A DNA stretch of 64,000 nt, from positions 16,540,390 to 16,604,389 of the forward strand of contig JAQNBH010000002.1 of assembly GCA_028752905.1 (NCBI GenBank), in the 5' to 3' direction. Of this stretch, positions 4,941 through 51,900 are shown piece by piece (positions within the stretch are counted from its first letter, which is position 1; each line of letters starts with the position of its first letter). A program made the position numbers and the translations under genes. The stretch is from Cladorhizidae sp. MBARI D1340-BT2 (lineage: Eukaryota; Porifera; Demospongiae; Poecilosclerida; Cladorhizidae). The notes below the pieces were generated by a model. The model saw only the letters and a list, made by a program, of their open reading frames with translations. It ran no database searches and was not told where the DNA came from.

Positions 4941-5610
4941 TGAGCCTGTTAAGGCCACCACATATGTAGCACATTGTTATGGAAATATAATAACTAACAC
5001 TAATAACAGTCTAAAAAATATATATGCTATCAATAATAGCTAGAGTGTCAGCCATTCAAAGAGGGGGAAGGGGAGGAGACCAAAGGTCATCCATTAGCTA
5101 ACCATACAACAATCCCTTCCTCCTCCATGACCACTTCCCTCCCCAATATATAACACACTCACCCACCTCCTCCATAACTGCATCACTTACTCCCTCCACA
5201 CTTTTCTCCAACAGTAATGCACCTTTTCATCCTTACCAATTCCTCCATATTCATCCAGCAACTGTCCAACCCCTACAATTCTGTACATCTTATCCACTAG
5301 TCCCTTCCAAATTTCTCATAAACTACCAAACATCTACCCTGCTCTTCTAAAACATATTATGTATCTCCCATCGCTAATTATTCCACATCTCTTCTTATCC
5401 TCTAACAACCTTGCCTATGCAGTCTTCAGTCTAAATTGCAATCTCACAACTTCCTGACCCTGCATAGATCTCACATACCTATCCACCACTGCACAATTTT
5501 TTGCCAATTTAAAAAAATTCAGCTATTCATGACGAAGGCTAGAGCACCTAGTCGAAAGGTTGAGTGAATATAATTTGAAGTTTATTATTGAGAAGGTGAT
5601 TATAATGTTA
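4941..5610 (+). repeat. Left pseudo-LTR-like repeat of a Penelope-like element
   Basis: The segment opens with GAGCCTGTTAAGGCCACCAC (4942 on), which recurs at 7808. It ends with a hammerhead-like motif followed by TTATTGAGAAGGTGATTATA, which recurs at 8088-8107. The PLE reading frames lie between the two copies, so these direct repeats behave like the pseudo-LTRs of Penelope-like elements. The left copy also holds a pyrimidine-rich stretch of about 400 bp (5090-5500) that the right copy lacks or has diverged in. Confidence 0.6.
5530..5600 (+). ncRNA. Hammerhead-ribozyme-like motif, copy 1
   Basis: TGACGAAGG is followed by a hairpin CTAG-AGCAC-CTAG, then TCGAAAGGTT. It has a one-base change in the CUGAUGA box and an altered NUH triplet, so it is probably inactive. 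It lies in the left flank of the PLE. Confidence 0.5.
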
Positions 5611-5699
5611 TGTATTAAGTCAACTGAGAGTTCATTGAGAGTTTATTTAAGGGAAACCTAGGCTAGCAATACCCAGAAATTAGTGAGATGCTACGAGAA

Positions 5700-7706
5700 G
5701 ATTTTTGCACCGGAGGGTTCTGTGGAAGAATCACCACATGTTCAGCATGAGATGCAGTGGCGAGGAAATTCTACCAGTAAGTTTAAGGATGAAGCCTCCC
5801 ATTAAGACCAGGGAAAGGTACAGGATAGCGGAGAGAGCCAGCAAAGTGTTCCCATCAGAGAAAATTCTCCAGTCCTACAGAAGAAGCAATGCCAGCTGAA
5901 TGTGAAGATCTGGAAGCCAAACTGGAACCAGCACTGGGAAGTGACTATCAGAGGATTCAGACCCTTTGTAGGTAAGCAGCAGAGAAGACCCACAGCAAAT
6001 CCAAGCAGAACTATCAAAAGAAGCTGGAGACGCTTTTGGAGAGGAGATCGAAAGAAGTGAAGTTTCAACCCCAAGACTTGAACAGATGGGTGGTGAATCT
6101 GACAGAGAAGAACCTTTCTCCAACTCAGAAAGAAGTGCTTGCTTTGTGTCTTAACTTTGTCCCTGCTCCAAAGAGTCTACCTCTGATGGACACCATGGCT
6201 GCAGTGGAAGAGATAGCCAGTAAGCTGGAGGATAACATGGCACATGAGCTTCGAGGTAGAGTATGTGGAATTTTGAGAAGAGCAAGGAAACCAAAGGACA
6301 ACCTGACAAAGGAACAGAGAAAAGCCCTGGGAGAACTGAGGAAGATGGAAGAGCTCATAATGTTACCAGCAGACAAGGGGAAGACAACAGATCTGATGAC
6401 AAAGGACAGTTACATTTCAAAGCTGACAGGAATGCTAGAAACTGGAATACTGAAGAAGGATCCTACCAAGGCACAGGAAAGCAAGGTGAATCATATGTTA
6501 AAGAATATGGAGAAGATGGGAGAAATAACAACTGCATTATACAATATAATTAGGCCCACTGGAAGTAGACCACCACTGATTTATGGGCTCTCTAAGATAT
6601 ATAAACTTGAGGTTCTCCTTAGGCCTATTGTGTCTTCACCATCGTATAATCTTTCCAAGTTCATTGCATATTTGATATCACCTCTAGCTGGAAATACAAG
6701 TACATATGTCAAGGATTCTGGGAAATTTATTAAGCATATTCAAGGTGAATGTTTAGCACAGGATAAGTGTCTTGTCAGTTTTGATGTTTCCTCTCTTTTT
6801 ACCTGTTCCCATAGATGAGGCTGTGGAAGTAATTTTTGGAATGTTGACACAAATGATGAGAGCTTCCGTGAGATGACTACACTTTACACTAGGTGCTGAC
6901 AGGATTTATGGACTGTTGGAGTTGTGCCTGAAATCCACTTACTTCAGGTATCAAGAAAAATACTACAAGCAGAAAGAGGTTGGAGCAATGGGCACTCCAG
7001 TACCTGCAGTGGTAATCAACCTTTATATGGAATTCTGAGGAATTGGCACTCACAACCGCCCCACTGAAGCCAAGGGTTTGGAAGAGATACGTGGATGACA
7101 CCTTCTGCATTGTGAAGAAGGGAAGTGAGCAGGAGTTGTTGGACCATCTGAATAACATCAGGCCATCCATAAAGTTTATCATGGAGCTTAAAGTGGATGT
7201 ATTGTTGCCCTTTCTGGACTGCCACCTGCACAGGAAGGAAGGTGGAAGGCTAACTGCAACCATTAACCCATGCATATCAACCGGTACCTTGATTATAGAT
7301 CACATCATCCTATCCATGTCAGAAGAGGAGTGGTGAAGAGCTTATATGATAGAGCCAGAAGAGTAGTTACTGAGAAGGAGGACCTTTGGAAGGAAGAACA
7401 TCATTTGAATAAGATCTTTATAGAGAACGGTTATCTGCAAGCCTTCATCAACCTTCATCTGCAGATACATCTAAATGCAGAAAGGAAGATGAGTACACCA
7501 GTGCAGGCAATGAGGGGTCTAAAAAGAAGGATCCTATGGTAGTGATTCCTTATGCAGCAGAAATGAGTGAAGACATCAGGAGAGGTCTGCAGGAAGTTCA
7601 ACATCAAAGTCGTTTTCAGATTGGGAAGAACTCTGAAGACACAACTGAGCTAATATGCACTCATGTGTTGTGTACCGCATCCCTTGTAGCTGTGGGAAAT
7701 ACTACA
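5700..7706 (+). pseudogene. Penelope-like element ORF (RT plus start of GIY-YIG)
   Basis: Conceptual protein pieces run from about 5900 to 7706. The longest open stretch (6036-6818) carries the N-terminal region with LPADKGKTT and YGLSKIYK, then RPIVSSP and SFDVSSLFT (RT motif A). After a break comes a VGAMGTPVPAVV-type motif (about 6980), YVDDTFCIV (RT catalytic motif C, about 7090) and FLDCHLHRKEG. The tail ends in VVYRIPCSCGKYYIGG, the start of a GIY-YIG endonuclease, where a trinucleotide repeat cuts it off at about 7733. RT followed by GIY-YIG is diagnostic of Penelope-like retroelements. Several stops and shifts show it is dead. A near-identical RT fragment lies at 19020-19375. Confidence 0.85.
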
Positions 7707-7732
7707 TAGGGGGAGACCATGACAATGATGAT

Positions 7733-7773
7733 GATGGTGGTGGTGGTGGTGGTGGTGGTGGTGGTGGTGGTGG

Positions 7774-7805
<32 letters not shown>

Positions 7806-7806
7806 C
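7733..7806 (+). repeat. GGT/GAT trinucleotide microsatellite
   Basis: A GGT run followed by a GAT run sits exactly where the GIY-YIG frame breaks. The glycine and aspartate runs read through it are repeat artefacts, not protein. Confidence 0.9.
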
Positions 7807-8490
7807 TGAGCCTGTTAAGGCCACCACATATACTACTGCATAGTTTGAAACTATCTAATGGTAACTAACACAAATAACAATATTTAATTATTATTATTAT
7901 TATTTATTTATTTGTTTGTTTGTTTATAATTTTTTTTACATCTGGCGCATGTGCTAGAGCACGTATACTAGCACGTGGTGGATAGCTAGCTACTGGCCAG
8001 GTATATATATATATATAGAAGACTCATGCGAGCCTTAGCATCATGAAGGCTAGAGCATCTAGTCGAAACGTCCAATTTGAAGTTGATTATTGAGAAGGTG
8101 ATTATAATTTGACCTCCTCCTCTTAAGCCTTTTCATTTCTCACTTTCATATTTTCCCTCCACTTATGTACCAACTCAACTTCACCGTCTATTTCATCCTC
8201 CTCCAGATCACATACTCTTCCATTATCCTCCTCGCTTAGTTACTTTCATCAACACTCTATAGCTATGGATGGGTTGCTAAACTGGAAATGCTCATCAGTG
8301 GCAATCTTGAGAATATCTGAGCTGGTTACCATCCCAACCTTACCAGTTTGGAATCTAGACATCTATTGCTTCTCCATATCACCATCCAAGCAATACAATA
8401 TTATGATTATGAAAAGTTACAGATCAGTGTCTAGGGTTAGGCCTGCAGCTATGCTTGGAGAGACCAATACCTAGAGCAGTGAATAAGACA
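7807..8490 (+). repeat. Second pseudo-LTR-like repeat, inserted in the PLE
   Basis: It starts with the same GAGCCTGTTAAGGCCACC block as 4941 and contains hammerhead-like copy 2. It continues with a region (8265-8490) that is recognisably related to 23925-24150: shared AACTGGAAAT, GAGAATATCTGAG and ACAGATCAGT landmarks. That gives a repeat family longer than the ribozyme motif alone. It separates the GIY-YIG start (7655-7705) from a GIY-YIG C-terminal piece at 8890-9045. Confidence 0.6.
8041..8110 (+). ncRNA. Hammerhead-ribozyme-like motif, copy 2
   Basis: ATGAAGG, a seven-pair stem GGCTAGA/TCTAGTC closing a GCA loop, then GAAACGTC. The GAAA box and GUC cleavage triplet are intact; the CUGAUGA box has lost its first bases. 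The shared tail TTGATTATTGAGAAGGTGAT follows. Confidence 0.6.
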
Positions 8491-9045: not shown

Positions 9046-9054
9046 GCGGGTAAT

Positions 9055-9100
9055 TGTTCCAGATGACAGCTAGAGCCGACTAGCCGAAATGTCTAGTGAG
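9055..9100 (+). ncRNA. Hammerhead-ribozyme-like motif, copy 3
   Basis: CAGATGA, then a stem GCTAG/CTAGC with a different loop (AGCCGA), then CGAAATGTC. The stem is kept although the loop and outer pairs differ from other copies. GAAA and GUC are intact. Confidence 0.55.
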
Positions 9101-9119
9101 CATTCCACCATGTTATTAC

Positions 9120-13100: not shown

Positions 13101-16100
13101 GTAGAAACTTCATGTGCATATAATTCACTATCCACCCACCTGAAGACCATCACCATCTGAAAGGAAGAAACAATGAGTGTTAGTAGAACTGTGTTTAATT
13201 ATAGAACTAACCTGTTCGCTATTAGATACATCAGTGGTTTCGTCTACCGTAATAGTGAAGAACTTGGAATCTTGCAGTCGAGAAATGACTATTCGGAGAT
13301 TCATCAAGGACATAACCTTCAATATCTCATTTTGGATGACATTAGATGTGTATTTCTCTCTCTTTCTCTTGAGCCACTCAAGAATCTGAAATATCAACCA
13401 AAAGTAATCTTACATCTCAACTTGTTTTTACTTAGCTATAACTTTGGGTCATCTTCTCCACGAAACACTAGTAGTTGGTGAAAATTGCCATCAGTTTCAT
13501 CACCATGTCCTCGTATAGCAGATCCCTGATGAGCGAGAAATCGTAAGTTAGATCAACAAACACTGTCTATTTTAAGCTTTCCCACGAGCATGTTCTGAAG
13601 ACAGTAATTCGCCAACATCACTGGTTGTTGCTGGTATAGTTAACAGCACTTGAACAGCATCTTTTTGAGACAAGCAACTTTCATGCTTTCAAAAGGATTT
13701 TGTTGCAATCCTTCCAATTACTGAAGCCTCTTGAAACCTTTCAGATTAACAGTAATAAAACTAAGACAGAGTACAAGTTAAATTAACTTACAAAAGATGG
13801 TTCTGCTTTTCCTGTTCTCATTTTTCCTTTCTTAATAGCTTCTTTTTTTTAAGACTAAATCCCTATCCACATCATAATGTAACCAGTCCCATGTCCTAAA
13901 CCAAGAAGCTTGGCAAGACCTCTCTTTGTTCTGCTTTCTGCGCTTTGGAAAGGCAAATGAGATAGATGGGTGATGAGGCTCAGCTATATCATAGACACTA
14001 ACACACTCCACTTCTACACTTGTAGAAGCAGCCATTTCAGAAGATCTAAAAAGAAGCAGCAGCTTAAGACTAGAGCACATGTGCACATAGACTTACTGAG
14101 CATGCCCAGTTTTATCCAAGGTATTTGACCTATGACCTCACTTTTTCTTTAAATATTGGTCAGGCCCGGGCCTGACCAGCCTGACCAGCTCCAACGCCTA
14201 TGTAATGCCAGCTATTTGGGGAAGGAAGAGTTCAAAGTAGTCATATGCATACCTTTGACATCAAAAATGAAACTTGTGTAATTTGTCCATAAGCTGTTTA
14301 ATGCAATGGTTATCCATCCAAATCTTCAACTTCGGTGAACAGAAATGCCTAAGAAGCACCCCCAGATAAGCACAGCTACCATCTTACTTGATGCATAATG
14401 TTCAAACCAGCACAGTGAAACTCAAAAGAGCACTCCAAGAACCGTGAGAAATGTACCTATATCTACAAACTGGTTCTGGCTAGGTTGTGGTCTGCATCAT
14501 GTAGTGGATAACTAGCTACCAGTATATAACACATGAGGCTGTTATTAAGGCTAGAGTATCTAGCTGAAACATAACTGAGAAATTCACTGTAGCTATCTAC
14601 ATTATGTCAGCTGAGAGTTGAGAAATATTCATGGAAATTGGCTGGTGATGAGCACATTTAGATTCTCTTCCTCCATACTACTATGGAGCTCCAAAGTTGT
14701 AACTACACGGGTTTTTTATTTGAGACACCCTTCACATGAACATAACTCCACTTTTAAAAAGATATATAAAAATATCTCTTTGACAATGTCTATACAATCA
14801 CAGCTGTTATAGCCTGCATTGAGTATGGAGAGTGACTGTACTTAACATTCCAACTGGTAGTTCCAAAAGATAAGCCAAAAAAATTATCACCAGAAAGCAT
14901 ACTGCACTGGCTACATTTTAGTATATAAATCAGGACCATAGCATGAATGTATGCAAAGATATGGTATTTTAAATGGTAACTTCGGTTTCAAGCCTTTGTC
15001 CCTGCAAGAGGAATATATAAGCACTGTCAACTAGCTAGCCAACCTCTCTAAGTACAACGACAATAGATTATAGGCTTAATAGTGTATTCTAGCAATAATG
15101 CAATCACTGAGGTAATTAAATTAGCCACGTAGGTTGCTAGTGATGGCAGCCTCTATATAGCAGACCTTTATCCTGGGTGCCAATTTTGTAAAGGGTCTTA
15201 GCATGAAACCACACCCTCAGCTATCTATATAGCCTCACCAAAGAATTCACACTTTCTTTTAAAAGGCTAAACATCAAGTACCTGACTTGTCAAATCACCT
15301 GCAATATTGCTACATCAGCATTATATTCGAGACATGCTTTCTTCAACTTCATATATCTATCACCTGTCTTGTGATCATGCACCAGAAGTGTAGGTGAGTA
15401 CGTTCCTTGGGAAACCTTTCATTAGTTTCCAATTAGTTTCACCAGCTAAGCCTCGCCAAAATCTACACGATGATAGTTGCTGTGTTTATTTTGTTGCTTG
15501 TCATTTTTATAAGAATTTTTTCCCCGTCAGCACCATTCACTCGAAAGAGGTTAATGGAAAATTCATTGCATTCTCATTCGTGTAAACGATACGCTGGAGG
15601 TCATATGAGTCGTCCTTCATATAAATGATACAGGTACATTTCTGCACCAACTCCAAAGGAAATAGGACTCGACCTTTTTATAATGGTTGCAGTCTTCTTC
15701 AGTGGCTATCGGACCCAGAATTGTAGTCCATCTCATGTATCCCCAATGCCTGACATCCGATACACATCATTGCTGATGGACTAGCAACTCTCTTTAGTTG
15801 TATGGGAGGATTTAACTATCTTTCCTGTTGAAGACACATTTACTTGCCTGATGTGGCATGTCTCCTCATTCTCACTTCGGAACCTGTTCTCTCTTCTCTG
15901 ATGATGACTTTTGTGTTCTCTGTTGTGAAAACATGTCCAGTGAAGCAAAATAATTTGCCAACATTTGTATGCTGAACTTTGCATTCTAATTTTTCTGTAC
16001 AACGAGCTGAAATATTTTAGGCATGCCTTACAACTGGGGAACGGTTCTTCATGAAGTGGTAACGCTACGATGATGAAGCAGGCCAACCGATTGTATGCAT

Positions 16101-16908: not shown

Positions 16909-16943
<35 letters not shown>

Positions 16944-19900
16944 CCTCTAACGGATGATATGTTTGTCCCAACTCCAACCCTTACCTACCTCACACAACAC
17001 ACACTCTCCTTTAGTTGATGGTGTGTTTAAAACTGTTCCATGTTTGACGATCTCCCTTCCTCTTGCAGCTGATGGCAGTGTATGTTGGCATTATGTTGCT
17101 GCATAGCAAAGAATACTGCACTCAATTATACCCGGCCCTGGAGGTGTGGAGTTATGAAGACCTGGCCTATGCTGCCTTCGGAGTTGTTGGGAGGGTAAGG
17201 AATGTGAAGGGGTGGGGGGGGGGGGTGTGAGTAGGAATGTGAGTGGTAGAGGGAGTGTAGTCTCACATAGATGACTGACCCTTTACCTAAATTACAGTGG
17301 GTGTAGGGATGGAAAGAGTTGGGCACAGTAACGTTGAGTGTTTTGCTCTGAGCATACACTTAGCTTAGTGCATATGTGACCTTGCATGTGATAGAATCTC
17401 TGTGGTGACATCATGATAGCATCAAGACTGGGATGCACTCAACTGGGAAAAAATGCTTGTCAATCCTTTTCCTTCTCCCTGCAGCTGAATGTGAGGAGGT
17501 AAGGAATCAACTATGTGAGACGAGGCAATAGCAACAACAACAACAATAATAACAACAACAATAATAATAACAACAACGATGATAACAACAACAACAAAGT
17601 CAATAACAACAATAACAACAACAATAATTAAAAAATAACAACAACAAAAATAGGGAAAACAGGGGAAAAACAGATATGAATACGCAAATGCAAGCCAAAG
17701 TTTGTTAAACAAAGTATTTGTATTTTTTGCTATTGTTGTCGATTCGGTCTTCATCTGATGAGCTTATTAAAAGATACACAAGAAAATAAGAATGTTTTTT
17801 TATAACCACTATATACAATATATATATTAAATCTACCCGTGGTTATATCCACCCTTTAACGTTTAAAATCATGCCCACCAATATTATATTATTTTTTTAA
17901 TATAACTTGTATAATGACTGAGTGTTTGCATGATTTTAAATGGTAAAGACATTTTCTGGTATACTTGGGTACCTTTTCTTCTTGACCAAGCAATCTGATA
18001 TATATATATACAGAGCTGGAAAGAAAGGAGAGAGAATTTTTTTTTGTTCTTGTCTCCTGTGCATCAGGATGGTTGTGTGGGTATGTAAGTTGACTACAAT
18101 TTGATGGATGATGCAAAACTTGTGTTCTTTGTCTGAGATATATATATATATATACTGTAGATAAAACACAACCAGCTATGTGACGAGGGAGGGGGAGGAG
18201 GAAATAATATAAGATACAATGGAACATAGTCCCCCCAGAAATATGTGTATATATTTCACTTCCTCTGAGATTGTTTCAGATTCAAATTCAAGCTTGTCAG
18301 GTTGAATAAAAATGGGAGGGGGAAGTGTGTATCGTGTTACTCTTTCATCTTACGCACAATGTAGATCCTGTCTCTACTGACACTAGCCACACTTCTCTTC
18401 TTGGCAATCATTGGATACATGATATTCACCAGAAATCAGGTGAGCAAGCTTTCCTCTCTCCCTAGCATGGCCTTTCTACCATCCTTCATTGTTCTATCGC
18501 TCTCTATCTTCTTCTTCGCCCCCTCTCCACCCCCTCCCTCCTCTCCCCTCTCTCTTCTCTAGTAATGAAAAGGGGAATTCTGGCATGCTTTTCCATATCT
18601 GATTAGTGTGCTAGAAAGTGTGCTAAAATTGGTGTTGGAATCTTGTTGCTGTCTTGGTGGGTTATGCTAGAACTATGCCTGTGTATGCAGGGTCCTGGCA
18701 CATTTTCCATGTCTGATTAGTGTGCAAAAAGTATCCAGACCCCAACGATGTCATGAGGTTTTGATAGACTTTTTCGTAACTGACAACCCTGTACTAGAAA
18801 GTGGGCTGGGCCAGAACACACAATCCATTCCGGCCTCACCTTTCTACTCTGAGGCTGTACTAGAGGTGTGTTTGCCAGACCAGCACTCTAGGTCAACCCT
18901 TGACTTTCAGGAGATTCTCCCGGAGATGGAGTTGCAGGTCATCAGAACTTCCATCTTAAAGGGTGTTTTATTTGAAGCTCTTTCTTCACAGTAAAGCTGC
19001 ACAGGCATCTAGACTACCCTAGAATTGTGCCTGAAATCCACCTACTTCAGGTACAAGAAAAATACTACAAGCAGAAAGAGGCTGCAGCAATGGGCTCTCC
19101 TGTATCTGCAGTGGTAGCCAACCTTTATATGGAATTCTTTGAGGAATTGGCACTCACAACTGCCCCACTGAAGCCAAGGGTTTGGAAGAGATACGTGGAT
19201 GACACCTTCTGCATTGTGAAGAAGGGAAGTGAGCAGGAGTTGTTGGACCATCTGAACAACATCAGGCCATCAATAAAGTTTACCATGGAGCTTGAAGTGG
19301 ATGGATAATTACCCTTTCTGGACTGCCACCTACTCAGGAAGGAAGATGGAAGGCTAACTGCAACCGTCTCTCTTCTATGGGCTACACTCAGCTCCCTTCC
19401 CACCTTCGGGCCTCAGGGACTGCTTCCTATGGTCATCCCTGCTCTGCTCTTTCCTCCGGAATGACCTGTGGGGTGGTTGATGGGATCTATCCTTGTTTCT
19501 GTCAGAGGGGCTGTTCTTCTTCTCCCGAACACTGTCATGGCGAGGTTGGCTGAATCTGGAACCATCTGACTTTCATCTTTTCTGGTTCTCCAAGTGCTGG
19601 TGAGCTATCTTAAGGACCTCCTTAAATGTGTCCTTGTCCCTCACCCAAGTGGACAGCCAACTTGGCATCCATTCCAGGACAAAGTCTGAGTCATACAGGT
19701 CCTGCAGCTGCTGTTGGCTCCGGCACTTCTGGCCCACCTAAAACTGAGGGGTTGTACCTTTCTCCCAAATTGGGTCCAGCTGATAGTCGGTCTCAACTCC
19801 AACATTCATCTTCTATGTGAGTGCTGTGTCCTTAGCAGCTCCTCTTTTATTGCCTCAAAGTTCTTCTTGTCTCCAGCATCCATGTTATCATAAATTTCCC

Positions 19901-22900: not shown

Positions 22901-25900
22901 CACCCTCATCAACCCCTCGACCTTGTACCCGCACTGTGCAAATAGTTACTGGTATTTCAATGATCCATCTATACCCTCCTCCTGATTGGCCCATCACACA
23001 GGAGGTCTCCAGTTTCCCTGCAGCTGCTAATAGCATTGGTAGTGCTTGTGGAGGCCGAGTTGGTGACTGCTACAAGAAGATGCTTATCATGAGTTCTACA
23101 AAAATAGTGCTCCCTCCATCAGTGGCCTCCCTTAAGTTGGATTCCCCACCCCTCTCCCCTTCTCTGCCCTCACCCCTTCCACAGGGTAAAGTGAAGAGTT
23201 CGCCACCTTCTATAAGAGTGCCATAGGTAAAACCTGGTTGTTAAGCAGCAATGCTTATAGCAACAGTCGGCCAACATATCTATGACCACCACAGGCATCC
23301 ACACCATACAAATTCCCACATTGTACAAAAAAAAATATAACTTTTGCTACATTGCTGAGCAACAGATTTTTTTCCACCTGCACATGCCTGGCAACTGAAT
23401 CCATAAGAGCTGATTCTATCAAACGGCAGCTTATTTTAATTGAAATTGTAAGCTTGTGTCTTGCTAACTAACTATATCTACATGGTCTAATGAACAAGTC
23501 CCAGCCTAACTAGTGCTCAGTGAACACGAGAATTTTTACTTCGTTTTGGCTGCTGGGCACTTGCCAGTCACGAACCAGCTGCATTCCTTAAAATTACTGG
23601 CGTGAGGGATAAACATGTCTACCTTGTGCAGCCATACTTGTTGTGGAGGATAAACATCTTGAAGCCAACTAGAATAATAACTACTTCCAGTGTTATAATC
23701 CAGGGAGAGGTTCTTATTTGACCACCGTTTCTGATGAATTATCTGTCTTAAACTGTCATATCATCCTTCCTTCCCACCAGTTTTCATGGATTATCTATGA
23801 TCTAACATTATTATACCAGCACAGACTTATCATTGCTGATGAAGGCCAGAGCATCTTGCCGAAACATTGAGAGACCTCAATTTATCAGCATGCTCTAGCT
23901 GTGGATGTGTGATAATGCCTTAAATAAAATGTGTTTGCTCAACTGGAAATAATTGCCTCTGTGAATCAGGAGAATATCTGAGTAGGCTCTCGCCTCAACT
24001 TTGCTCAAGTCCTAAATATGTAAAGATCTTAGCCACTTCCCTCCAATCCAAGCACTACAGAAAAAAACAGATCAGTACTTTATTAGGAGTTCAGCTAAGC
24101 TAGGATTATATTAGGACTATCTAGAGCAATATCCAATAGGCAGGCCACCACACTACCATAATTTGATTGTTGTTAATTTGGTTGTTGTTTTTCCCCTTCT
24201 ATCATGCCTTTGCTCGCCACTTAACACCTTGCATTAATTGGGACCGCTTATGTATGTTTCTTGCATAGCATTTAACAAACCAAGCACACAAAAGAAAATG
24301 GCTCACACTCTTTCCTTCGCTTTTTAAGTCTCTCTCTCTCTGTGTGTCTGTTCTTCTCTTGCATTAGTATCTTCAGTATTCTGCTGGTGGGTTACTTGAT
24401 CCTTTCTAGGACGATCATCACCCATGCGAGTGGTAGCATCGAAGGAGATCAGCACATACAGCTGGGTCCCATTAACTTCCAGGGCGTCATTACCGTCATC
24501 TCGTACTGCGGCCTCACCTTCATCTGCCACTTCAACCTCCTCCCCCTTCAGAAGGAGATGACTGGAAACCAGACGAGAGCCAAGCTCTATTTTACCATTG
24601 TGGGGGCACTTGTTACTGCTTACCTCATTAATAATGTTGTCATATTTTCTGCATATTTCAACGTGAGTGCTTATTCAGGACTAAACTTTACTGGGTTGTG
24701 CACAAGAGTAGTCTCCATTGCTTGATTCTCTTACAATATCTTTTCCTTTTGGGACTATGTATTGTGATGCACTTGTTATTATCGTGACGGAGAGCAGCTG
24801 CTAGTCACCACTTCTGGTTACATTTCCAACTTAACTCGCTCCTAGTTGCACTGTCCTACCAAAAATGAATCTCCTGGTCCATACCACATCCTTCACTTCA
24901 TGCTAAATTTACCACACCCATCAGTCCCTTTTTTTGTTGAGTTTATTTTGATTTCTGAAGAACACTAGCCAATACATAGATGATCCGATTACCGAGAATT
25001 TTATTTTTATTTTTTAATCCGTGTCAGCCGAGATTTTCTTAAGATTTATTATAATACCCTCAAGGCTCAACTTTAGTTTGTTTCTGACATTTCAGCTAAG
25101 TGCTCTAGGCTTCACTATTATTATACTCGTCAACATCATCATCACACTCATATACTCGTTTGCTTGTTTTTGTTTATTCATTTGTTTTTGTTTTTGTTTA
25201 TTCATTTGTTTGTGTTTTTGTTTATTCATTTATTTGTGTTTTTGTTTATTCATTGTTTTTGTTTATTCATTTGTGTTTTTGTTTGTTCATTTGTTAGTGT
25301 TTTGTTTATTCATTTGTTTGTATTTTTGTTTATTGTTTGTTTATTCATGTTTTTGTTTATTGTTTTTGTTGGTTCAGTTGGTTCATTTGTCATTTGTTTG
25401 TGTTTTTTTGGTTTGTTTTTGGTTTATTCATTTGTTTGTGTTTTTGTTTATTTTTGTTTGTTTTGTTCATTAATTTTTTGTTTATTCATTTTTTTTAATT
25501 TGTTTTGTTTTGTTTTTGTTTATTCATTTTTTTGGTGTGTGTGTTTGTTTTTAATTTGTTTGTTTTTGTTTATTCATTTGTTTGTGTTTTTGTTTATTCT
25601 TTTGTTTGTGTCTTAATGTATTTTTATGTAGTTCTATAGTGAAATCACCTCCGACCTCATGCTCAACTACGAAAATGATGACATACTGATCACAGTGGCT
25701 CGAATCTTTCTGTTTATTACCATACTCATGAGTTACCCTGTGCTCCTGCACCCAACTAGAGCGAATATTAATGGGTAAGTCCTTAGGAAATAGGTGGTAA
25801 ACCATTAATAATTATGCTGAATTTGTACCTAGTCATAATGATACCAGGAAAGTCCTTATAGTGGTAGGTACTTGCAAATTATGATGGTATTATATTGGGT

Positions 25901-28900: not shown

Positions 28901-31900
28901 GCCAGGTACTTCTCGAGTTGCTCACGGTTTTCCTCGGTGGCTGGGACTGGCAGTTCCCTGTGGCATGGTGGGGGTGAGGTGAGTTGTGGGCAGTCACAAT
29001 CTAATGTTAGTTGGGAGTTGACGTTGGAGACAGTATTGCATTGTGTGGTGACCGTAGCATTTGTGGAGTGTTGGTCTGGGGGTATTTCGCCTATTGTAGG
29101 GAACCCATCAGTGATCATCCCTAACACTGTGCATGCCTCTTCACTGAGGAATAGCCTGTCGGGTGTGTCGGTGACATAGGTGAACTGGCGGGTCTCAATG
29201 ACATTGCCTGCCTTGTCTAGTCCAGAGAATCGCAATATAGCTGCTCTAAAGTTGTTGATATTGTTATCGTTCGCTGCGTGCATCTTCATCCTGATCGGTA
29301 TCAGGTTGCATTTGTGGAGGCCAAGTTTACAGACAACATTGATGCCCACTAAGCAGCTCTGACATCCGGTGTCAGCCATGGCGTGAACAGTAACGGTCTG
29401 TCGATTGGCATGAAGGGTGAAGCCGAATTGTGCGTAGTCTTCGCATTGAACTCTCATGTGTAACTTGATGTGTGGCTGAGGTTGGGATGGCTGTTTCACC
29501 CATGTACCAGTCAATTTGTTATATGGGTGGTGGTCCAGGATGACACCCTTTTTCCTCGATGTGTGGTGATGGTGCACAGGAAGTCAAAAATGGCACCTTC
29601 ATGGGCATCCAGCTCTGGGGCACTTCACTGCTGGCATTTTCAGAAAACAGGACAGGTAGTAAAAATTACTCTAGTAATCAGTTATGTACACATAGATGAT
29701 AGGGACAACTCCCACTTACAACATGTACTACAGCTTATATAAGGAATGTGTACAGAACTGAGCATGCATGGTAAGGGATATCAGTTAAATAGGTTATAAA
29801 TTGTTATTATCCTCTTCCCATTCATATTTTTATGGGTGAATATATGGTGTATAGATAGATCATAGACACATGCATGGTTTCCAACCTATTCCCACCATCA
29901 GCTACTTGGCAACAGTGAACTCCAAATATACTGAATGCAAGCAAGTGGCCTGCGAAGGTGTTGTGTACTGGAGAGAGAGAGAGACAAAAGGGGGAAAATA
30001 ACAACAATAAAATGGTAACGAAATCTAGGCACCGACTGATGAGCAAAGGTGCTATGGAGAGGGTTACAAATTAGCAAAAAAAACAATTAAGGCCAGCGTT
30101 GAATTTTTTGACAATATTTTTTGGGGGGGCTTATATCCTTTCTAAACATCTGTACAAACTGTCTTTCAAATTTGAAAACATTTGGATGCACAAGTCTCTA
30201 GTTATGGTGGATTTTATCCAGGCTCTCACTTACATTCAAAGTACTTACAAAGTAGTCTAGTGGTGGCCCAATATAGTAGTAGCCCAACTTCAATAGCGAT
30301 TTCTCAGAAACATGTTTTTTTGACGGTCAAGACAGATATCTCAAGGAAAAATTTATGTATACCTGCTTCATTATATATCATTTTGTAGCTCTATCTTTGC
30401 TCTACGATTGTAGCGCGGAGTTTTTCAATTTGGAAGTGCTAGTCCAATTATATAGTCATGTGTATATACCCTAATATGCCCATATTATAGTTGACCTTGT
30501 CATGAAAACTCCGTTAGTGTTGAGGTTAATTTTTTTTGCTGGAATCAAGCTTTAGTGGTTCCTCTACTACATCCATAAAAGGGAAGTGTGTATAGGGCAT
30601 ATCTTAGGAGAGGGATATTTTATTGTAACTCTGGTCAGAATTTTTTCAAACCTCTATACTTTACTGAAACTTCTTATAAAGCACATCATTAGAAAGCTCA
30701 TGCAGAGAGCTGTATTCTGGTACCAAAATAAAATGTAGGGGAAGAAGGACAACACAGTTATGGACGTTTACATAAACTATGATAAAATGGGCAACGCTGG
30801 CCTTAAGGATAAATCCAGGTATTGTTTGGTTGCATTGCTCAATTCATAGTTCCAACCCAAGCATAGACTACTATTGCATGCTGATCTGTAAATTTTGAGG
30901 TCAAATTGTATTGCTTGGATGCGATATGGAGAAGTAGCTGAAAATTTATGTGTTCCATACAGATTCTAAACTGGTACAATATTTTGTATGAGAACCAGCT
31001 CAGATATTCTAAAGATTTATCCCTAGCCCTAGCTCCAGCCCTAGCCCTAGCCCTGGCCCTAGCCCTAACTGCGATGAAAATTTCCAGTTTAGCAAACCAT
31101 CAATAACCAGTGCATATGATGAATTGAGTGATTATGTCAGAATTACACTTCACCATCCCTTCCTGTCAGCTACTAAACCTTGCAGCCCAAACTCACTGGC
31201 CTGTGCAGACAAGTTTTCTTTTCTCTAACTAGCTCCTAATCTGCTGCATTCTTTCTCTTCACTATGACGACCATTCCCGGTGTACATACACAAGCTTTAT
31301 TTAATGCCGGTTACCTGGGCATTTTTTATAGGTAAACATTCAGTGACTACATAAATACATAGCCGTGTGCAGCAATACCATCAATTCACAACCGCGTGCT
31401 CGCTTTGCTCTTGTCTAACGAATTCTAGGCATTGAGGAGCGAGCTAAGAAAAAGAAATAAGCTAGAGCATCTTCATGAACCAAGTAACAAAGTCCATCTT
31501 CCTTTCATGTGGGTCATACAGCCCATTCTCACCTGCCTGTGCAGCAGATTTTATTATTATTTTTTGTGGGCTATGGGGGAAGGTGGTTTTGGAGCACTTG
31601 CAGGGGGTTATTAAGGATGGGTTATTAGGAAGGGGTTAGTAGGGAGGGGTTATTAGGGAGGGTTATTAGAGGGGTTATTAGGGAGGGGTTATTAGGGAGG
31701 GGTTAGTAGGGAGGGGTTATTAGGGAGGGTTATTAGATGGGTTAGTAGGGAGGGGTTATTAGGGAGGGGTTAGTAGGGAGGGGTTAGTAGGGAGGGGTTA
31801 TTAGGGAGGGGTTAGTAGGGAGGGGTTATTAGGGAGGGGTTATTAGGGAGGGGTTATTAGGGAGGGGTTAGTAGGGAGGGGTTATTAGGGAGGGTTTTTA

Positions 31901-34900: not shown

Positions 34901-37900
34901 TGTTTAACAATGAACTTGAATGTGTAAGGTGTTTGGGGCTAAGATTTACATTGATACAAAAGCCTACCCCAAGTTCTACAGGCTTAGGCATGTATTTTTT
35001 TGCACTATGTAAGATGAATCAGAAGCTCGATTGACTAGGGAGAGATTGAACTTTGTCAGATTCTCAGATTCCATTGATATGGTGGTTATGCGACTATATG
35101 CATCTGCAGAGAACACAAGGGGAGACTAAATCAAGCATCATTGTTGGAATTCTGTCCTCCACTGTCTAATGATGACCTTCTAGCTTGCTTCTCAAGAGAC
35201 ACATTATATTTTTAAGCTGGACCTGCCTCATGCCTACGTGCAGATTCCTTTAGATACAGAATCAGGGAAGCTAACCACAATATCTAAAAAGGTCTACTCT
35301 CTTACAACTGCCTACGATTTGGAGTGCCAGCCATACAAACAACCTTATAGAGGATTATTGGGAAAATCCTACAAGGAATGCCTCATATATGTATCAACCT
35401 GGGTGACATATTAGTGACCATACTCATCTACTACGCACATTATAATGCTTTGTCAGCCCAAAAAAACAACTGCTGACAAAATCTTTAAACACATGTAAGT
35501 AGAGGGGCTACAGTTTGATCATCTTGTCTAAATAGCTAGCAGCTATTTACTAGTGCTGTGGTAGGTGCCCCAAAGATACTAATCAATCAGAAATTGACAG
35601 TTCTCTTCAGATGTGAAGTTATGACAATATGTATATTATTTAGAAATCACATGATTCTTTTCTCATTCCTCTTACCATTTAAGATGCTTCAAGTTGAATA
35701 GAGAGAGAGTATTTTTAAAATTTATTTGGAGTGGCAGGCTTGTAGAATGAGAGAGAGATCTGAGTCTGCAGGGCTGATGGAGCGAGAGAGCGCAGGACTG
35801 TGAGAAATGAATAGTGGCCAGTGGAGCCGATCATAGCAAAATGCAGTGTGTACATGCTTGCCTGAATCTACATTTTTCAGTGGTGGAACTTGCAATCATT
35901 GACCTGGTAGTTGCCAATCACATCATGGCACACACATTTGATGACTCAGAGAGGTTCTTGAGTGTTCTTAATGGAGTCGAATGCATTGAGGTTATCCTTA
36001 TACACTGACATTACTTTCCAAAAAAAATTGTTTAAAGGATCTTGACATAGATGGTTGTTCAAGAGGACTGATATTCTCTGCCAACTCAGCAAAGGATTTG
36101 AATGTATAACAAGCAAGGTTAGCCATCACAGGATCATGCAGTTCTCCCTAAAGAGATAAAACATCAAATGAATGACTTTTTCAATAATTGACTTGAATTT
36201 ATTCAGTTGATGCTTCAGCTCGATGCCCTAGCTTTCATCTAACCTTCGTCAAGAATAATCTAGCCTTCCTGATGAAGGTTAGAGAATTGACCTGAAATAT
36301 CAGTGGAGTAAGATTATCGAGAAAATCAGTGTATCAAAATCAATGTTGACAGTGTATTTCCTTGTATATAGAGGAGTGGTAAATCCAAAAGATACTTTAC
36401 TTTTCACTTTGAAAGGCACCCAGAGATAGAATGGGGAATATTCTTGTGCTTAAAACTTCCTTTAGCAAAACCTCAGCTCTAACAGAAACTTCCTCTCCAA
36501 ATTTAAATGGTCCACTCTTTGTTCTGTTCATGTTACAGGTACAACAAATTTGTGACCGCTATAGCTCAATGGAAATGCATCATAGAATCAGAATGGGTCA
36601 CATTCTTGTGCTACAAACTAGCTCTAGCCAAAACTAAGCCTCAAGAGAAACTTCCTATTCATATTAAAGTGGTCAACTGTTCATTTTACTGGTACAAGAA
36701 TTTGTGACTCCCAATTACCAACCAAGTTGAGTTTCTTGGAGCTACTGTACTAGCTAATTTTGTACACTAATAATAAGTGCTGCCCTCAGGTTGGTCCCTC
36801 TACTTTAGCTCATGTAACTTGGGTATAGTTGTACATATGGAAAATGTTTTAGTATCACAAGAGAGCAAACAGAGAGACCTATCTTTTGAGCTATATATTA
36901 AGTCCATTCCATGAAGTGTGCACAATCTATGGAGCTAAAAAGTGGTAACCACACGTTTTTAGCACCTACTAGTCCATGGTCATGTCTCCTCTGTGACTCT
37001 GGATATATTAATCTGCTAAACAACATTTTTCATAAGGAGAATTGTAGAAAATCGAAGTTACTACAGGCTTTAAGAACTTGTATTTTTCTTGTCTATTCAA
37101 TGCAAACAAGAACATAATGTTGGAAAGTGTTGTTAGTACTGAGCTTGCCATTAAAAAGAACTAGCTGCAGGCCCCACATTTCCCTGACTGAACAGTTGGC
37201 AAAGTCTACTTCATGTAGGAGAGCTTGAGCACAAGTTGAAGTAAAGGGGTGTTACAGCAGCTGTTGTAGCATCTATGTGCTTCACCACTTCTTGAGCTTC
37301 ACTACAGGAAACAGACTAGGCTTACACCAATGTAGAGATACTCCAGCAACATCTTCATCTCTTTGACAAACCAGTCAACTCCCACCTGACAATGAACTCC
37401 ACAAGCTCATGGAGGTAGTTCCTTGTACACAGATGTGCTAATATAGTTTTCCAACAAAGTCTCGATGCTATTGTTCCAGACCCTTCCCCACCAGGTACAA
37501 ACAGGGCCTAGCCTGGAATCTGATTCCCAGTGCGGTGAACCTGTTCATATGTAGCCACATCAGCATTAAAAAATCTCTGTCTTGTAGCCTCACTTACTTA
37601 GCATTCCAGTGCCTCAATTAACTTGTCTAGCTTTGAATCACTGCTGTCTCCCAACATGTCAATCATGTAATGGATTTCCTTCATGTGTGACAGGTACAAT
37701 TTGACTGTTTGCTACTACAAACACAATCGTTGCACAGACACACCCCTCCAACATCGGAGATTAGTATCTTTGTTTAGTGCCACCACAAACTATAAGAAAA
37801 TTGGCACTTAATTGTGAACAGGCACTTCCTGAACAATTAATACAGACTCATTCTTTCATCAACCAAAATTAAATGAACTGGTATATAGCACCAATTCTAG

Positions 37901-40900
37901 CCTAAACATTTTGTGCACTTCACTGTAATGCTATTGTGCATGAACATAACCGATGCTGTGACAGCTAGTGACCCCAACACTTGACAGTGACATATATACC
38001 ATGGGTGAGGAGGCCTGAACAGCTTGTTGTGCACCAAACATTGACCAAAGTTTGCATAGTGTGTAGTCCTAATGTACATACATACATGCTGAACTTGTAT
38101 AAGACTATTTATATGATATCTTCAATATTGTAATCACTTTCTCAATGACCGTTTATCTAGAGTAACTAGCCAAATTATTGATCATTGAAAAATTTCAATG
38201 ACCTTCTCCAACTTGAAATTGTATTCTCTCGACATTTCGACTAGATGCTCTAGCTCTTCATCAGGAATAATGAGGATTGATTATATTCTAGTACTGTGTG
38301 ATCTGGGAGTTTGTTGAAAATTTTAACATTTTTCACTGTTAGCATTATTATGATCTGCGAATATTTCCCCCTGCGAACAACCATGCAGTTCATCACCAAT
38401 TATGTATATTAAATATCCTGTTATATTGGGACATATTATGCGGAACAATTTTTTTAATGTGAGAGAATGTGGCTCATTACTACATGCTTTGATGTAATAA
38501 TTGTTCGCAACGGTTCAGGCATGACTCAGTGTAACACTTTGGAAAATGGCTCTAATGTATAATGTATACTATTGTTTAGTAGTCTTAACTTTAAGTGTGA
38601 TTCAACGTTACATGTTACAGTTCAAGTCTGACAATATTCACATGTGTAACTCAGCATTACACATTCTTACATGCTCTGACACATTTGTTTCATGAGTCTT
38701 TATATATATGTGACTTAATGTTACTAGTTGTTGTACTCTAACAATCAAATTGTTTGAAGTCTTAGACTAAGTTACAAGTGAATCAAAGTTATTGGCATAA
38801 CCTACTAACATGTAAAGCAGTTCAGAAGTGTTATACTTATTGAATATTTGTATTGTAACTTCATTAACAAGAATTCAATGAACAATTGTCTAAAGTTTGT
38901 TAAATGCAACTGCCAAGTGTTAAGGTTTGAGCCAAATATTGGGCAAAAAAATGTCTGGCGGGGGGTTTGATTTTGTGAGCCGGTGTAAGAATGTTCATGC
39001 TGGGTCTTGCTGGTTGGATACTCACTCTATTTACAATACTACTAGTAGAGTAACTATTTTTTATTGTGACGTGCAAACCTGACAGTGGTCGTCAGATGCT
39101 CCTCCCCTCCCACCCAAACAAACAAATATGTGTAATGCAAGACAAGTTCTATGACAACATGCATACCAGAAAGATGAGCCACTTCTTCACGACCGAGCAA
39201 CCCTAGTGTGACACCATCACAATGACATAATACTGAGCAACCCTAGTATGACACCATCACAATGACATAATACTGAGCAACCCTAGTATGACACCATCAC
39301 AATGACATAATACTGAGCAACCCTAGTATGACACCATCACAATGACATAGCACCCTAGTATGACACCATCACAATGACATAACACTGAGCAAACCTAGTA
39401 TGACACCATCACAATGACATAGCAACCCTAGTATGACACCATCACAATGACATAATACTGAGCAACCCTAGTATGACACCATCACAATGACATAATACTC
39501 AGCAACTGTAGTATGACACCATCACAATGACATAATACCGAGCAACCCTAGTATGACACCATCACAATGACATAACACTGAGCAACCCTAGTATGACACC
39601 ATCACAATGACATAATACTGAGCAACCCTAGTATGACACCATCACAATGACATAATACTCAGCAACTGTAGTATGACACCATCACAATGACATAATACCG
39701 AGCAACCCTAGTATGACACAATCACAATGACATAATACTGAGCAACCCTAGTATGACACCATTACAATGACATAATACTGAGCAGCCCTAGTATGACACC
39801 ATCACAATGAGACACAATATTGAGCAACCCTAGTATGACACCATCACAATGACATAATACTGAGCAATCCTAGTACGACAACATCACAATGACATAATAA
39901 TCAGCAACCTTAGTATGACACCATCACAATGACATAATACTGATGCCTTACCTCAACATGTCTCCATGTAGTGGCAGCTGCATCACATTTGTGACGGCGG
40001 TTATTATAGCCTACCAAATGTGGCGGTAAAATTGATTACCTCTGTTATTTCTCAGGGCCATTTATCTCACCTATAAGATGGTTTCAAAGTTCTGTTCAAA
40101 GAGGAAGCAGACAGTGCCAGTCAAAGAGACAAACACTTCCATTTATGCTGAATTTAAGGTATACGAAAGTAAACTTATTATTTTGTGGATGGCTAAGTGT
40201 GTTAGGGTTAAGTGTAGAGAGGAGTTATTAGTGTGTTAAGATTGAGTGTGTTTAATTGATGTGTGAAGTAGAGTGAAGTGTGTAAAGTGAAAGGTTAAGT
40301 GTGGATCTGTTAAGAATGCTAAATTTAAGCACAGGGATGAAGTGAGACTTTTAAGTGTGTGTTGAATGTGTGAGGTTAAGTGTGGATGGTTAAGGGTGTT
40401 TTGAAAATAGCATGAAGTGTTTTGAATGTGTTAGCATTAAGCGTGTTAATGTTAAGTGTGTTAAGGTAATGTTGCCCCTTTGTCTTCTTCTCGTCTCAAA
40501 CACTACTCCCTTTCTTCTCCTCACCTCCTCCATCCTCTTTGCATGCTCCATTTATCCTCCCCCCCCCCCACTCACTCTTCCCCTAAATCTTCTTTAACTG
40601 CAACCTTTGGCATGCTCGTTAGGTACCAACTGTAGTTTGGTTTGTGGAGACTGTGGCTCTCTTCAGCTTGACATTCATTATTGCCACTTATATCAACGAT
40701 GTAAGTGAATCTATTTTCACTGTTGCTTTATACTGTTGTTTTTCATAGTATATTTTAGAAGGGTGATTTCAGTGACGTCATAAGATGTACAAAATATTTA
40801 TCTTGTAATCAGCTCAAATGCCAACATTTCAATCAAGTGTTTTGGTGCTAGCCTTCGAAACGTTGGCATAAAAAAGAAACAATTTGGACTGATTTGCTTC

Positions 40901-43140: not shown

Positions 43141-43150
43141 CACAATACGA

Positions 43151-43220
43151 ATGACTTTTTCAATAATCAACTTGAAATTTACCTTCTCGTCATTTCGACT
43201 GGATGCTCTAGCCTTCATTT
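43151..43220 (-). ncRNA. Hammerhead-ribozyme-like motif, copy 9
   Basis: Minus strand ATGAAGGCTAGA, GCA, TCCAGTCGAAATGAC, then the shared tail TTTCAAGTTGATTATTGAAA. The GUC is changed to GAC, which would block cleavage. Confidence 0.55.
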
Positions 43221-43689
43221 ATTCCCTCCAGTTTATGAATCTAGCTACAATTATCAGAGATGGTGTGTGGTTGTGACCAGTCAGCACCTAGTTAGGGTAG
43301 GAGGTGGAAGAAGAAGTGTTATACACTACTCCCCTACCAACAAAGCCGGCTCAACGCAGGATCATGTGCTTGGTCATGATAATGATATGTTTTTCAGTCT
43401 CATTAGCTAGTTAGGTTTACTCCCCGTGACATTATAGGTTCTCCTGAGGTGCCATTAGATGCTAGTGTATTACCCTCTACTCCCTGAAGCCCTCAGCAAC
43501 ATTCCTCTACTGGCTCCAGGATAAAGGTTAGCCTTGTGTCCCCATTGGGTGTTACGAGAGGATAATAATGAGCACGACTACTGTGTGGAAGATGACAAGG
43601 CAACCCGTTTGTCTTTAATAGCTGGACTGAATTCCTTTTTATGTTGCCCAAAATGCAAGTCCGTGAACATTGTGTACAAATAAGTAAAG

Positions 43690-48040: not shown

Positions 48041-48435
48041 TCTACTGACATTAGTCAGTTCTCTCTCCTCTACTGTTCTGCAGGCAGTTCTCTCTCCTAC
48101 TGACTATGCAGCCAGTACTCTTTCCTCTACTGCTCTGCAGCCAGTTCTCTCTCCTCTATTGACTGCACAGTCAGTTCTCTCTCCTCTACTGCTCTGCAGC
48201 TAGTTCTCTCTCCTACTGACTATCTACTGACTATGCAGCCAGTTCTGTCTCCTCTACTGCTATGCAGCCATTCTCTCTCCTCTATTGACTGCACAGTCAG
48301 TTCTCTGTCCTCTACTGAGTATTAGTCAGTTCTCTCTCCTCTACTGACTGTGCAGGCAGTTCTCTCTCCTCTACTGACTATGCAGTCAGTTTTCTCTCCT
48401 CTACTGACTATGCAGCCAGTTCTCTCTCTTATGTT
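48041..48435 (+). repeat. Minisatellite beside the gap
   Basis: Units of 27-30 bp: CAGTTCTCTCTCCTCTACTG plus ACTATGCAGC or CTCTGCAGC variants. Confidence 0.9.
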
Positions 48436-48774
48436 ATCCACACATAGCTTTATTGGGAACTACATACAGTATGTACCAAAACATGAAGCTTTCCCTTAGC
48501 CTATGAACCCCTTGTTGCCCACTCTGGTTTTGGTGGCATTTTTTCTCTTCTTCTTCTTCTCCCCTTAACCATCACCCTATTTTACAGGTGTTTAATTTAC
48601 TAAGATGTTATTATTCTTGTATACTTTAGTAATCTACGTGCGGACGAGGGATACTGGCGTTTCGAGTGTCACATAAGTGTGGTGTGCAGGGGCATATAGA
48701 TGTCCTTCATCGGTAGAAACCCGAAAAAGAGAAATACCAATTCCCAATCTATAAGTTCTTCGTCTGAAGAGGCC

Positions 48775-48814
48775 ATGTCCAAATGTCCAAAATGTGGAGA
48801 ACCCGTTTACTTCG
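48775..48814 (+). CDS. CRIP-like: CRIP-like exon 1
   Basis: Thirteen codons plus one base from an ATG in the context GAGGCCATGT. The donor is G|GTGAGT. Too short for ORF searches; recognised by the CPKC LIM start and the splice phase with 62847. Confidence 0.85.
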
Positions 48815-48952
48815 GTGAGTGAGGCAATATCTCTGTATTTCTCCAATATTTCTTCATAAGGGTTCTGATCTTTCCATCTAAATTAAGGGTGTTCCCTTTA
48901 TATTCAGTGTGGGTGGGCCAAGACAATAATTTTGAGCTTAACAAACATTCTC

Positions 48953-48990
<38 letters not shown>

Positions 48991-51900
48991 CCTCCCCCCC
49001 GCACACACACACACAGCAAAAAAAAAAAACGGGAGAAAACTACATGAAACATTCTTGGTTGGCATATTGAATTACAATGACCTTCTCTATACAATAGTCA
49101 ACTTGAAATTGAATTCTCTCCATACTTCGGCTTGACTCTCTAGCCTTCATCATAATTGATATGAAGCATGACCAGTAATGGTTCCGCGGTTCAGGCATAT
49201 TGGACTGTCATACATGTCGGTGAAATCCTTGGCTTGGTGAAGACCAAATATAACTGGTGATTCTAACAACACTCACATGGTAGAACATGTGTGAAACACC
49301 AAATGGCATGCCCAAAATGCCATACCACATTCTAAACAGGCAGGTGTCAGAGTAACCCTGTGAATTCAGAGATGCTCTGGTAGGGTAGCAGCTGGAGGCT
49401 GGAGGGGTAGCAGCTGGAGGGTTGAAGCTGGAGGGGTAGCAGCTGGAGGGGTAGCAGCTGGAGGGGTAGCAGCTGGAGGGGTAGCAGCTGGAGGGGTAGC
49501 AGCTGGAGGGGTAGCAGCTGGAGGGGTAGCAGCTGGAGGGGTAGCAGCTGGAGGGGTAGCAGCTGGAGGGGTAGCAGCTGGAGGGGTAACAGCTGGAGAG
49601 TGTGAACAAAATTATTGCCTGTCGCGACATACAAGCTGTGAGTACAAGCTCAAGCCCTCGGGGCGAATATATCTCCCCAGACCCCTCTTCTCTAACGACG
49701 TACTAAGTATGTCTAAGAGCGTTCCACACATATCAGGTCAACAACCCCCCCCCCCTCACCCATTCTTACTCCCTTAGCTGAAGATCTTGTCAGAACTCCC
49801 ACCCCCTATCCCTAGAGTAGCACGCCCACTAACCTATGTACGTAGCAAGGTTTGTGCACATGTGTGCGTATGTATGTGTGTGTGTGTGGTGTGTGTGTTA
49901 GTTCTTGTTGGTGGTGGGAGAATTCTAACCCCTACAGTCATCTGGTCTTCACCATGCCAACGTAGCGTGATGCAGACTCCTTCCTGTCTAGCACAATCCT
50001 GCGCACAAGCAGTATGAATGTGTGTATGCATGCATTGGTATGCACTTGGTGATGTTGGAGCTACAATGTGTTGTTAGGGCTTTAATTCGGCTTGTGATTT
50101 AGTCTACTCGACTGACACTAAAGTGCCTGGACAGTATTACACTTGTAGAAGGATGTGTAGTCAACAGGTTTGCCTTGCACTTAGAAAGTGTAAACGTACA
50201 CCAAGGCACACATACAAACATGACCACATACACACAGGCACACATACACACAGGCACACATACACACAGGCACACAGGCACACATACACACAGGCATACA
50301 TGACCAGAGGCACACATACACAAGGCACACATATACAGGCACACATACACACAGGCACATACACACAGGCATACATGACCACATACACACAGGCACACAT
50401 ATACAGGCACACATACACACGGATACACATACACACAGGCACACATGTGCACATACACACAAGGGCACACATGTACGCATACATGTACACACAGGACAGG
50501 CACACATGCACACATAACACATGCACACATGACTACATACACACAGGCACACAACACAGGCACACATACACACAGGACCACATACACCATACACATGACC
50601 ACATGCACACAGGACCACATACACACAGGCACACATACACACAGGCACACATACACACAGGCACACATGCACACAGGCACACATACACACAGGCAGACAT
50701 ACAAATAGGCACATACATGTATGACCACATACACACTGGCATACATGACCACATACACAGGCACACATACACACAAGTACACATACGCACTGGCATACAT
50801 GACCACATACACACAGGACCATACACACAGGACCATGTACACACTGTACCCAGGCACACATACACACAGGCACAGATGAGAGATGAGAACATACATACAT
50901 GTAGTACATACTCTTAATGCATGCACACATAACCAAGCTATCGTACAAGGTAGGGCTAGGATAGGGCTATGTATGTTAGAGCTAGCTAGGAAAGGCTAGA
51001 AAGAGCTTGGATAGGGCTAAGACTAAGATAAGGTTAGGACTAGGATGGATGTAAGCTACTGTAGGAAAGGCTATGGCTTGGATAAGGCTAAGACTAAGAC
51101 TAGTTAGTAAGGCTAAAGTAAGGGTTGGTAAATCTCTGCACACGTCACTTGTATTTGTCGACATTGTGGACTTGCCCAGTTGCTAGATTGTAATATGCAA
51201 TTGTTGCATTGTGTGCCACGGCAAAGGCTGGGATGTGCCCCCTTCTGCAAGCCTCGGCGTACTGTATGATACCATTACTCTACCTTACAGAGTTAGGAAG
51301 AACTCGACAACAAGGAGTTATGGCCTTCAAAGAACTGTTGTCTTGGCAGCGTATGTACCTGTTGTGGCTGTGTGCGTATTGTAGAGTCACCTTTCAGGCT
51401 GGGCCACTTTGTCTCCCGAGTGTCTAGACGTTGCTGGTCAGGGAGCTCCCTCTCGAGCCTGAGGAAATCTACGTGGAGCTGTTTGATGTTCTGCCACCTC
51501 TTGGAACGCTTCCTGCCACGCCCTTTACACTGCCATTGTTTGCAGTGGTGTTGGTGGCACCTTGCTCTCGGCATTCAGGGCAGGTGGTCTAGAGTTTCCC
51601 TTGCAATCTCTTTGATCTTTCTCCGGGTCGTTTGTCTGCCTTGTGTTGAATGTGACATGTGTGTTGTCTGTGTTGAGGTCACTGCCAACCTTCATGGATA
51701 AAATGGTTGCTGAATTTCTTGTGCTCAAGAACTGGACACCCACTGAGTGTTTTGTGTGCTGGTGGTGTGTGTGCTAGTGTTGTGTGTGCTAGTGTTGTGT
51801 GTGCTAGTGTTGTGTGTGCTGGTGTTGTGTGTGCTGGTGTTGTGTGTGCTAGTGTTGTGTGTGCTAGTGTTGTGTGTGCTAGTGTTGTGTGTGCTAGTGT

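What the first reader, a model, noticed from the sequence alone, without database searches (positions are those of the whole stretch)
5530..49152. Dispersed hammerhead-ribozyme-like motifs on both strands
Ten clear copies (5530, 8041, 9055, 14541, 23836, 36269 on +; 36174, 38197, 43151, 49077 on -) share CUGAUGA-like, helix II hairpin, GAAA, then usually GUC or another NUH triplet, plus a common tail TTTCAAGTTGATTATTGA. Copies at 23836, 36269 and 38197 keep all three catalytic signatures. Helix II differs between copies yet still pairs (GGCTAGA/TCTAGTC, GCTAG/CTAGC, GGTTA/TGACC), as expected for an RNA fold under selection. Penelope-like elements are known to carry hammerhead ribozymes. An extra A after CUGAUGA and a very short helix III mean activity is not certain.
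Basis: partly seen in the sequence, partly recalled or inferred. Interest (0 to 1): 0.8.

Follow-up and report, generated by a model that had tools for sequence, protein, structure and literature searches.

The report
Decayed Penelope retrotransposon leader fragments
The window holds eleven scattered copies of a roughly 75-base leader piece of a Penelope-type jumping gene that carries most, but usually not all, of a small self-cutting RNA motif; the association is already known and these copies look mostly inactive.

Summary
The repeats are real. One is the leader of a broken Penelope-like element (PLE), ending at its start codon; another lies behind that element. Minimal hammerheads lacking helix III in PLE repeats are published (passages of PMC6155905, PMC7761336).

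The ribozyme reading is partly supported. Helix II and GAA are kept, NUH in 9 of 11. But shared sequence mostly starts at U4, inside the core: identity rises from 0.21-0.32 to 0.64 there. C3 is C in 4 of 11, CUGANGA is complete in 3 of 11, and own flanks form helix I no better than swapped ones. Helix II shows no covariation above shuffles. Rfam gave no hammerhead. The extra A has a viroid precedent (PMC3705267).

Best reading: decayed copies of the PLE leader, U4 to start codon. Only 38197-38267(-) remains a plausible hammerhead. The two shared edges are the odd feature; they may mark short insertions copied from the 5' end of PLE RNA. The source genome could not be searched (12 attempts unanswered).

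The parts
5526..5601 (+). Copy 1 of the leader unit, directly before the PLE start codon (ATG 5605-5607, inferred); C3 is A
8037..8103 (+). Copy 2, behind the PLE; core changed at C3 and G5; GUC and self-complementary ACGU
9057..9117 (+). Copy 3; C3 present, U4 is A; tail not recognisable
14538..14606 (+). Copy 4; C3 is G, core changed
23833..23889 (+). Copy 5; CUGAUGA, GAAA and AUU kept; no contiguous helix I pair; one helix II mismatch
25050..25121 (-).
36171..36244 (-). Copy 7; C3 is T, U4 is A; head to head with copy 8
36266..36330 (+). Copy 8; CUGAUGA, GAAA and AUC kept; lowest-energy fold pairs CUGAU with AUCAG
38197..38267 (-). Copy 9, best hammerhead candidate: CUGAUGA, GAAA, GUC, 3 contiguous helix I pairs
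43150..43224 (-). Copy 10; core and NUH changed (GAC)
49076..49156 (-). Copy 11; C3 is A, AUG in place of NUH
5605..7711 (+). Broken PLE coding region: RT homology from 5632, several frames and stops; start of a GIY-YIG-type domain at 7667-7711, then cut off at a GAT repeat
18791..19395 (+). Second PLE fragment; 19022-19365 is 93% identical to 6919-7261
4938..5008 (+). Short repeat before copy 1, 79% identical to 7804-7879
7804..7879 (+). Short repeat before copy 2, same order as on the other side of the PLE
30881..31287 (-). Paralogue without the PLE: matches 4762-4936 and 8245-8427 at neighbouring places, so about 4937-8244 looks inserted

Best explanation
The copies are decayed pieces of the 5' leader of a Penelope-like retrotransposon, running from U4 of a hammerhead-like core to the start codon. 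Shown: eleven related units, one of them joined to a PLE reading frame at its start codon and one behind that frame, with shared 5' and 3' edges. Inferred from published PLEs: in PLE RNA the helix II hairpin and tail belong to the region that the PLE protein binds and near which reverse transcription starts; with C3 and helix I supplied by upstream repeat sequence the same stretch would be a minimal type I hammerhead without helix III, cutting as a dimer or with protein help. Because the shared unit mostly starts inside the catalytic core, most copies here should not self-cleave in cis.
For: Model recovers 11 copies. The unit ends at an in-frame ATG (5605-5607) and a long relative, P0123 (827 aa), starts at the matching place. 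RT homology to 387 proteins. The window's VVYRIPCSCGKYYIG aligns to 26 of 228 relatives held, among them P0128 (93%), whose precomputed domains include PF01541; PF01541 taken as GIY-YIG by recall. 5' edge at U4, 3' edge in 7 copies, C3 in 4 of 11 and no helix I.
Against: The 5' edge is not absolute: gapped alignments of some pairs run about 6-12 nt further upstream, and 43193/5530 and 36213/9055 run about 45 nt further at 67% and 63% identity. No target-site duplications. The sequence between the paired short repeats does not align, so pseudo-LTRs are not clean. No relative's DNA could be compared.
Confidence: 0.8

Rival explanations
1. The copies are working minimal hammerheads, acting as dimers or with PLE protein, kept by selection.
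For: GAA invariant, NUH 9 of 11, helix II paired in 84-86% of cells; strict descriptor CUGANGA-stem-GAAA has 1 hit against 0.04 in 100 shuffles; the tetramer 15.1-16.1 is self-complementary, as a dimer would need, in 6 of 11.
Against: Complete CUGANGA in 3 of 11, helix I 12 pairs against 11.6 with swapped flanks; no covariation excess; no Rfam hammerhead; in 23837 and 36270 the lowest-energy fold buries CUGAU in other pairs.
Confidence: 0.08
2. The unit is an independent short interspersed element that merely resembles or was picked up by the PLE.
For: Shared edges on both sides; nine of 11 copies lie away from the main PLE.
Against: One copy ends exactly at the PLE start codon and another lies behind the PLE in the same orientation; no target-site duplications.
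Confidence: 0.07
3. Chance matches to a short degenerate motif.
For: Exact CTGATGA is not enriched.
Against: 11 hits at 7 mismatches or fewer against none at that level in 10 shuffles.
Confidence: 0.01

Closest known systems
Minimal type I hammerheads in PLE pseudo-LTRs (Cervera and de la Pena 2014; Lunse et al. 2017; originals not held, seen as cited in PMC7761336 and PMC6155905)
   Same: Hammerhead-like core without helix III, dispersed in an animal-like genome and next to a PLE
   Different: C3 and helix I not conserved here; extra A before helix II (whether published PLE motifs share it could not be checked)
Poseidon element of Anolis, PAc (PMC11167929, main text read)
   Same: Hammerhead motif at the start of the reading frame, between repeat and RT frame
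   Different: PAc frame begins at stem II; here the frame begins about 70 nt later; PAc motif keeps C3 and cuts with its protein
Plus hammerhead of chrysanthemum chlorotic mottle viroid (passage of PMC3705267)
   Same: Extra A between A9 and helix II
   Different: Active viroid ribozyme; no relation claimed
Metazoan non-LTR retrozymes (passages of PMC7229834)
   Same: Small type I hammerhead repeats in animals
   Different: Those are tandem repeats with canonical hammerheads; copies here are dispersed single units

Membership tests
Hammerhead ribozyme | Core C3-U-G-A-N-G-A | tested here: not met
   Complete in 3 of 11 copies; C3 is C in 4 of 11, P 0.19 by composition
Hammerhead ribozyme | Helix II followed by GAA | tested here: met
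   84.4-85.7% of 77 cells paired, GAA in 11 of 11; copies were gathered by similarity to this stretch
Hammerhead ribozyme | NUH at the cleavage site | tested here: met
   9 of 11
Hammerhead ribozyme | Helix I | tested here: not met
   12 contiguous pairs against 11.6 with swapped flanks, fraction 0.47; duplex energy -25.1 against -24.7
Hammerhead ribozyme | Rfam covariance model match | tested here: not met
   None in the window at gathering or E <= 10, nor in two 151-base stretches; those models expect helix III (recall)
Hammerhead ribozyme | Self-cleavage | not testable with these tools
   Needs an experiment
Penelope-like element | PLE-type reverse transcriptase | tested here: met
   387 relatives at E <= 1e-3; homology 5632-7650 in pieces with stops
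Penelope-like element | GIY-YIG endonuclease after the RT | tested here: inconclusive
   Start of the domain aligns to 26 of 228 relatives, one with PF01541 at 93%; the domain is cut off and its 30-residue piece matches no Pfam family
Penelope-like element | Pseudo-LTRs on both sides | tested here: inconclusive
   Two pairs of colinear short repeats flank the RT, but the sequence between them does not align
Metazoan retrozyme | Tandem repeats with canonical type I hammerheads | tested here: not met
   Copies dispersed on both strands

The most novel reading that the evidence does not exclude
The unit from U4 to the start codon is a discrete insertion product: PLE reverse transcription starts near the 3' edge in the 5' copy of the leader and runs off the RNA 5' end at U4, leaving very short insertions with two fixed ends, a strong-stop-like by-product that seeds genomes with most of a hammerhead and completes the core only where the neighbouring base happens to be C.
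Probability: 0.2. Interest if true: 0.5.

Novelty: new member of a known kind. Interest (0 to 1): 0.3.

Why it matters
The role of hammerheads in Penelope-like elements is described as unknown (passage of PMC7761336). Copies that keep helix II and GAA but lose C3 and helix I suggest that motif counts in animal genomes may include leader fragments that cannot cut. If the shared edges hold genome-wide, they would show from DNA alone where PLE RNA begins and where its reverse transcription starts.

Tried and rejected
Rfam at gathering and E <= 10 on the window and on two 151-base stretches: no hammerhead family listed. IMG/VR pattern scan: 0 matches. PLE RT alignment against IMG/VR (125 pattern matches) and GTDB contigs (96): no relative confirmed. 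Target-site duplications: own score 62, permuted mean 63.0, fraction 0.67. Hammerhead-encoded peptide at the N-terminus: 0 of 228 relatives. Single-strand folds of 11 copies: z from -3.68 to 1.72, three at or below -2; I see no complete hammerhead among them. ATT within 6 nt before U4 in 4 of 11 (background 0.083, P 0.0096): looked for after seeing the flanks, so not used. A tail-only match at 4432-4458 (E 0.074) starts near the predicted cleavage site: one weak case, not used.

Rows dropped: 40898-40925(-) from all family counts; the 3'-edge profile used 7 of 11 copies, those with a clear tail; the 5'-edge profile used 11, with 9055 misplaced by 6 nt, corrected. In some searches only the first 120 relatives were used; 228.

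Full report
What is there. A covariance model built from 11 copies recovers those 11 at E <= 3.7e-5, partly by construction. Exact CTGATGA alone is not enriched: the evidence is the longer shared sequence.

Where it sits. The open frame 5976-6815 has 387 relatives at E <= 1e-3, of which 120 were listed. A second search from one of them gave longer relatives, up to 847 aa among the 120 listed; 3 of those 120 carry PF01541 together with PF00078. I take this as the RT plus GIY-YIG plan of Penelope-like elements; the family names are from recall. In the window, coding homology starts at 5632 and runs on in several frames with stops. The piece VVYRIPCSCGKYYIG (7667-7711) aligns to 26 of 228 relatives, 93% to P0128, which carries PF01541; then a GAT repeat cuts the domain off. 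The relative P0123 (827 aa) has residue 9 at 5632, and an ATG in that frame lies at 5605-5607 (sequence, frame). So the unit at 5526-5601 ends at the start codon: it is the PLE leader. Another copy, 8037-8103, lies behind the PLE. A second short repeat (4938-5008 and 7804-7879) stands in the same order on both sides. A paralogue at 31287-30881(-) matches the outer flanks up to about 4936 and from about 8245 at neighbouring places, so about 3.3 kb looks inserted.

Is it a hammerhead? For: helix II pairs in 84.4-85.7% of 77 cells; GAA is invariant; NUH in 9 of 11; a strict descriptor has 1 hit against 0.04 in shuffles, and its extra-A form 1 against 0.10. Against: identity between copies is 0.21-0.32 up to the base before U4 and 0.64 from U4 on; C3 is C in 4 of 11, as composition would give (P 0.19); permuting upstream flanks leaves helix I pairing unchanged (12 against 11.6, fraction 0.47); one double change in helix II, no more than in shuffles. 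Complete CUGANGA survives in 23837(+), 36270(+) and 38263(-); of these only the last has contiguous helix I pairs (3). Copy 5530 has 5 but lacks C3.

How sharp are the edges? At the 3' side identity falls from 0.52 to 0.29 about 20 nt after GAGAAGG in the 7 copies with a clear tail. At the 5' side some pairs extend 6-12 nt in gapped alignments, and 43193/5530 and 36213/9055 about 45 nt at 67% and 63%. So the U4 edge is a strong tendency, not a rule.

Literature. PLE repeats carry minimal type I hammerheads lacking helix III, which may act as dimers, with unknown role (passages of PMC6155905 and PMC7761336). The Anolis PLE motif cuts only with its protein, is not needed for insertion in vitro, and reverse transcription there starts inside the RNA, 111-118 bp into the frame (main text of PMC11167929). 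An A10 like the extra A here exists in CChMVd with a moderate rate loss (passage of PMC3705267). Two searches on PLE, hammerhead and truncation or non-autonomous terms listed one and five papers, seen as listings only there; none of their titles names short PLE units with two fixed ends. Many papers are not in that library.

Mechanism. Shown: related units, PLE linkage, shared edges, loss of C3 and helix I. Inferred: the unit is the PLE leader; the PLE protein may bind it and start reverse transcription near its 3' edge; the 5' edge may be the RNA 5' end. No target-site duplications support this last step. Cutting in cis by most copies is unlikely; 38197-38267(-) is the one worth testing.

Limits. 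One window, 11 copies, no relatives' DNA; the genome search did not complete (12 attempts). Copies were gathered by similarity, so conservation inside the unit is partly chosen. The host is not identified.

Noticed in passing
36171-36330: Two copies of the unit stand head to head about 21 nt apart and form an imperfect inverted repeat; Rfam lists a sub-threshold MIR5304 match there (E 0.15).
   Followed up: partly
27696-29583 (-): Open frames with RNase H-type retrotransposon domains in the first (PF17919, PF17917), likely an LTR element.
   Followed up: no
979-1431 (-): Frame with a sub-cutoff DUF4371 match (27.5 bits against 32.1), possibly a DNA transposon remnant.
   Followed up: no
51701-53345, 55092-56034, 60764-62401, 31577-32207, 39116-40012: Long tandem arrays with periods of about 15, 24, 46, 14 and 40 bases.
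   Followed up: no
4417-4469 (+): Weak tail-only match to the unit (E 0.39; 0.074 with a tail model), starting near the predicted cleavage site.
   Followed up: partly
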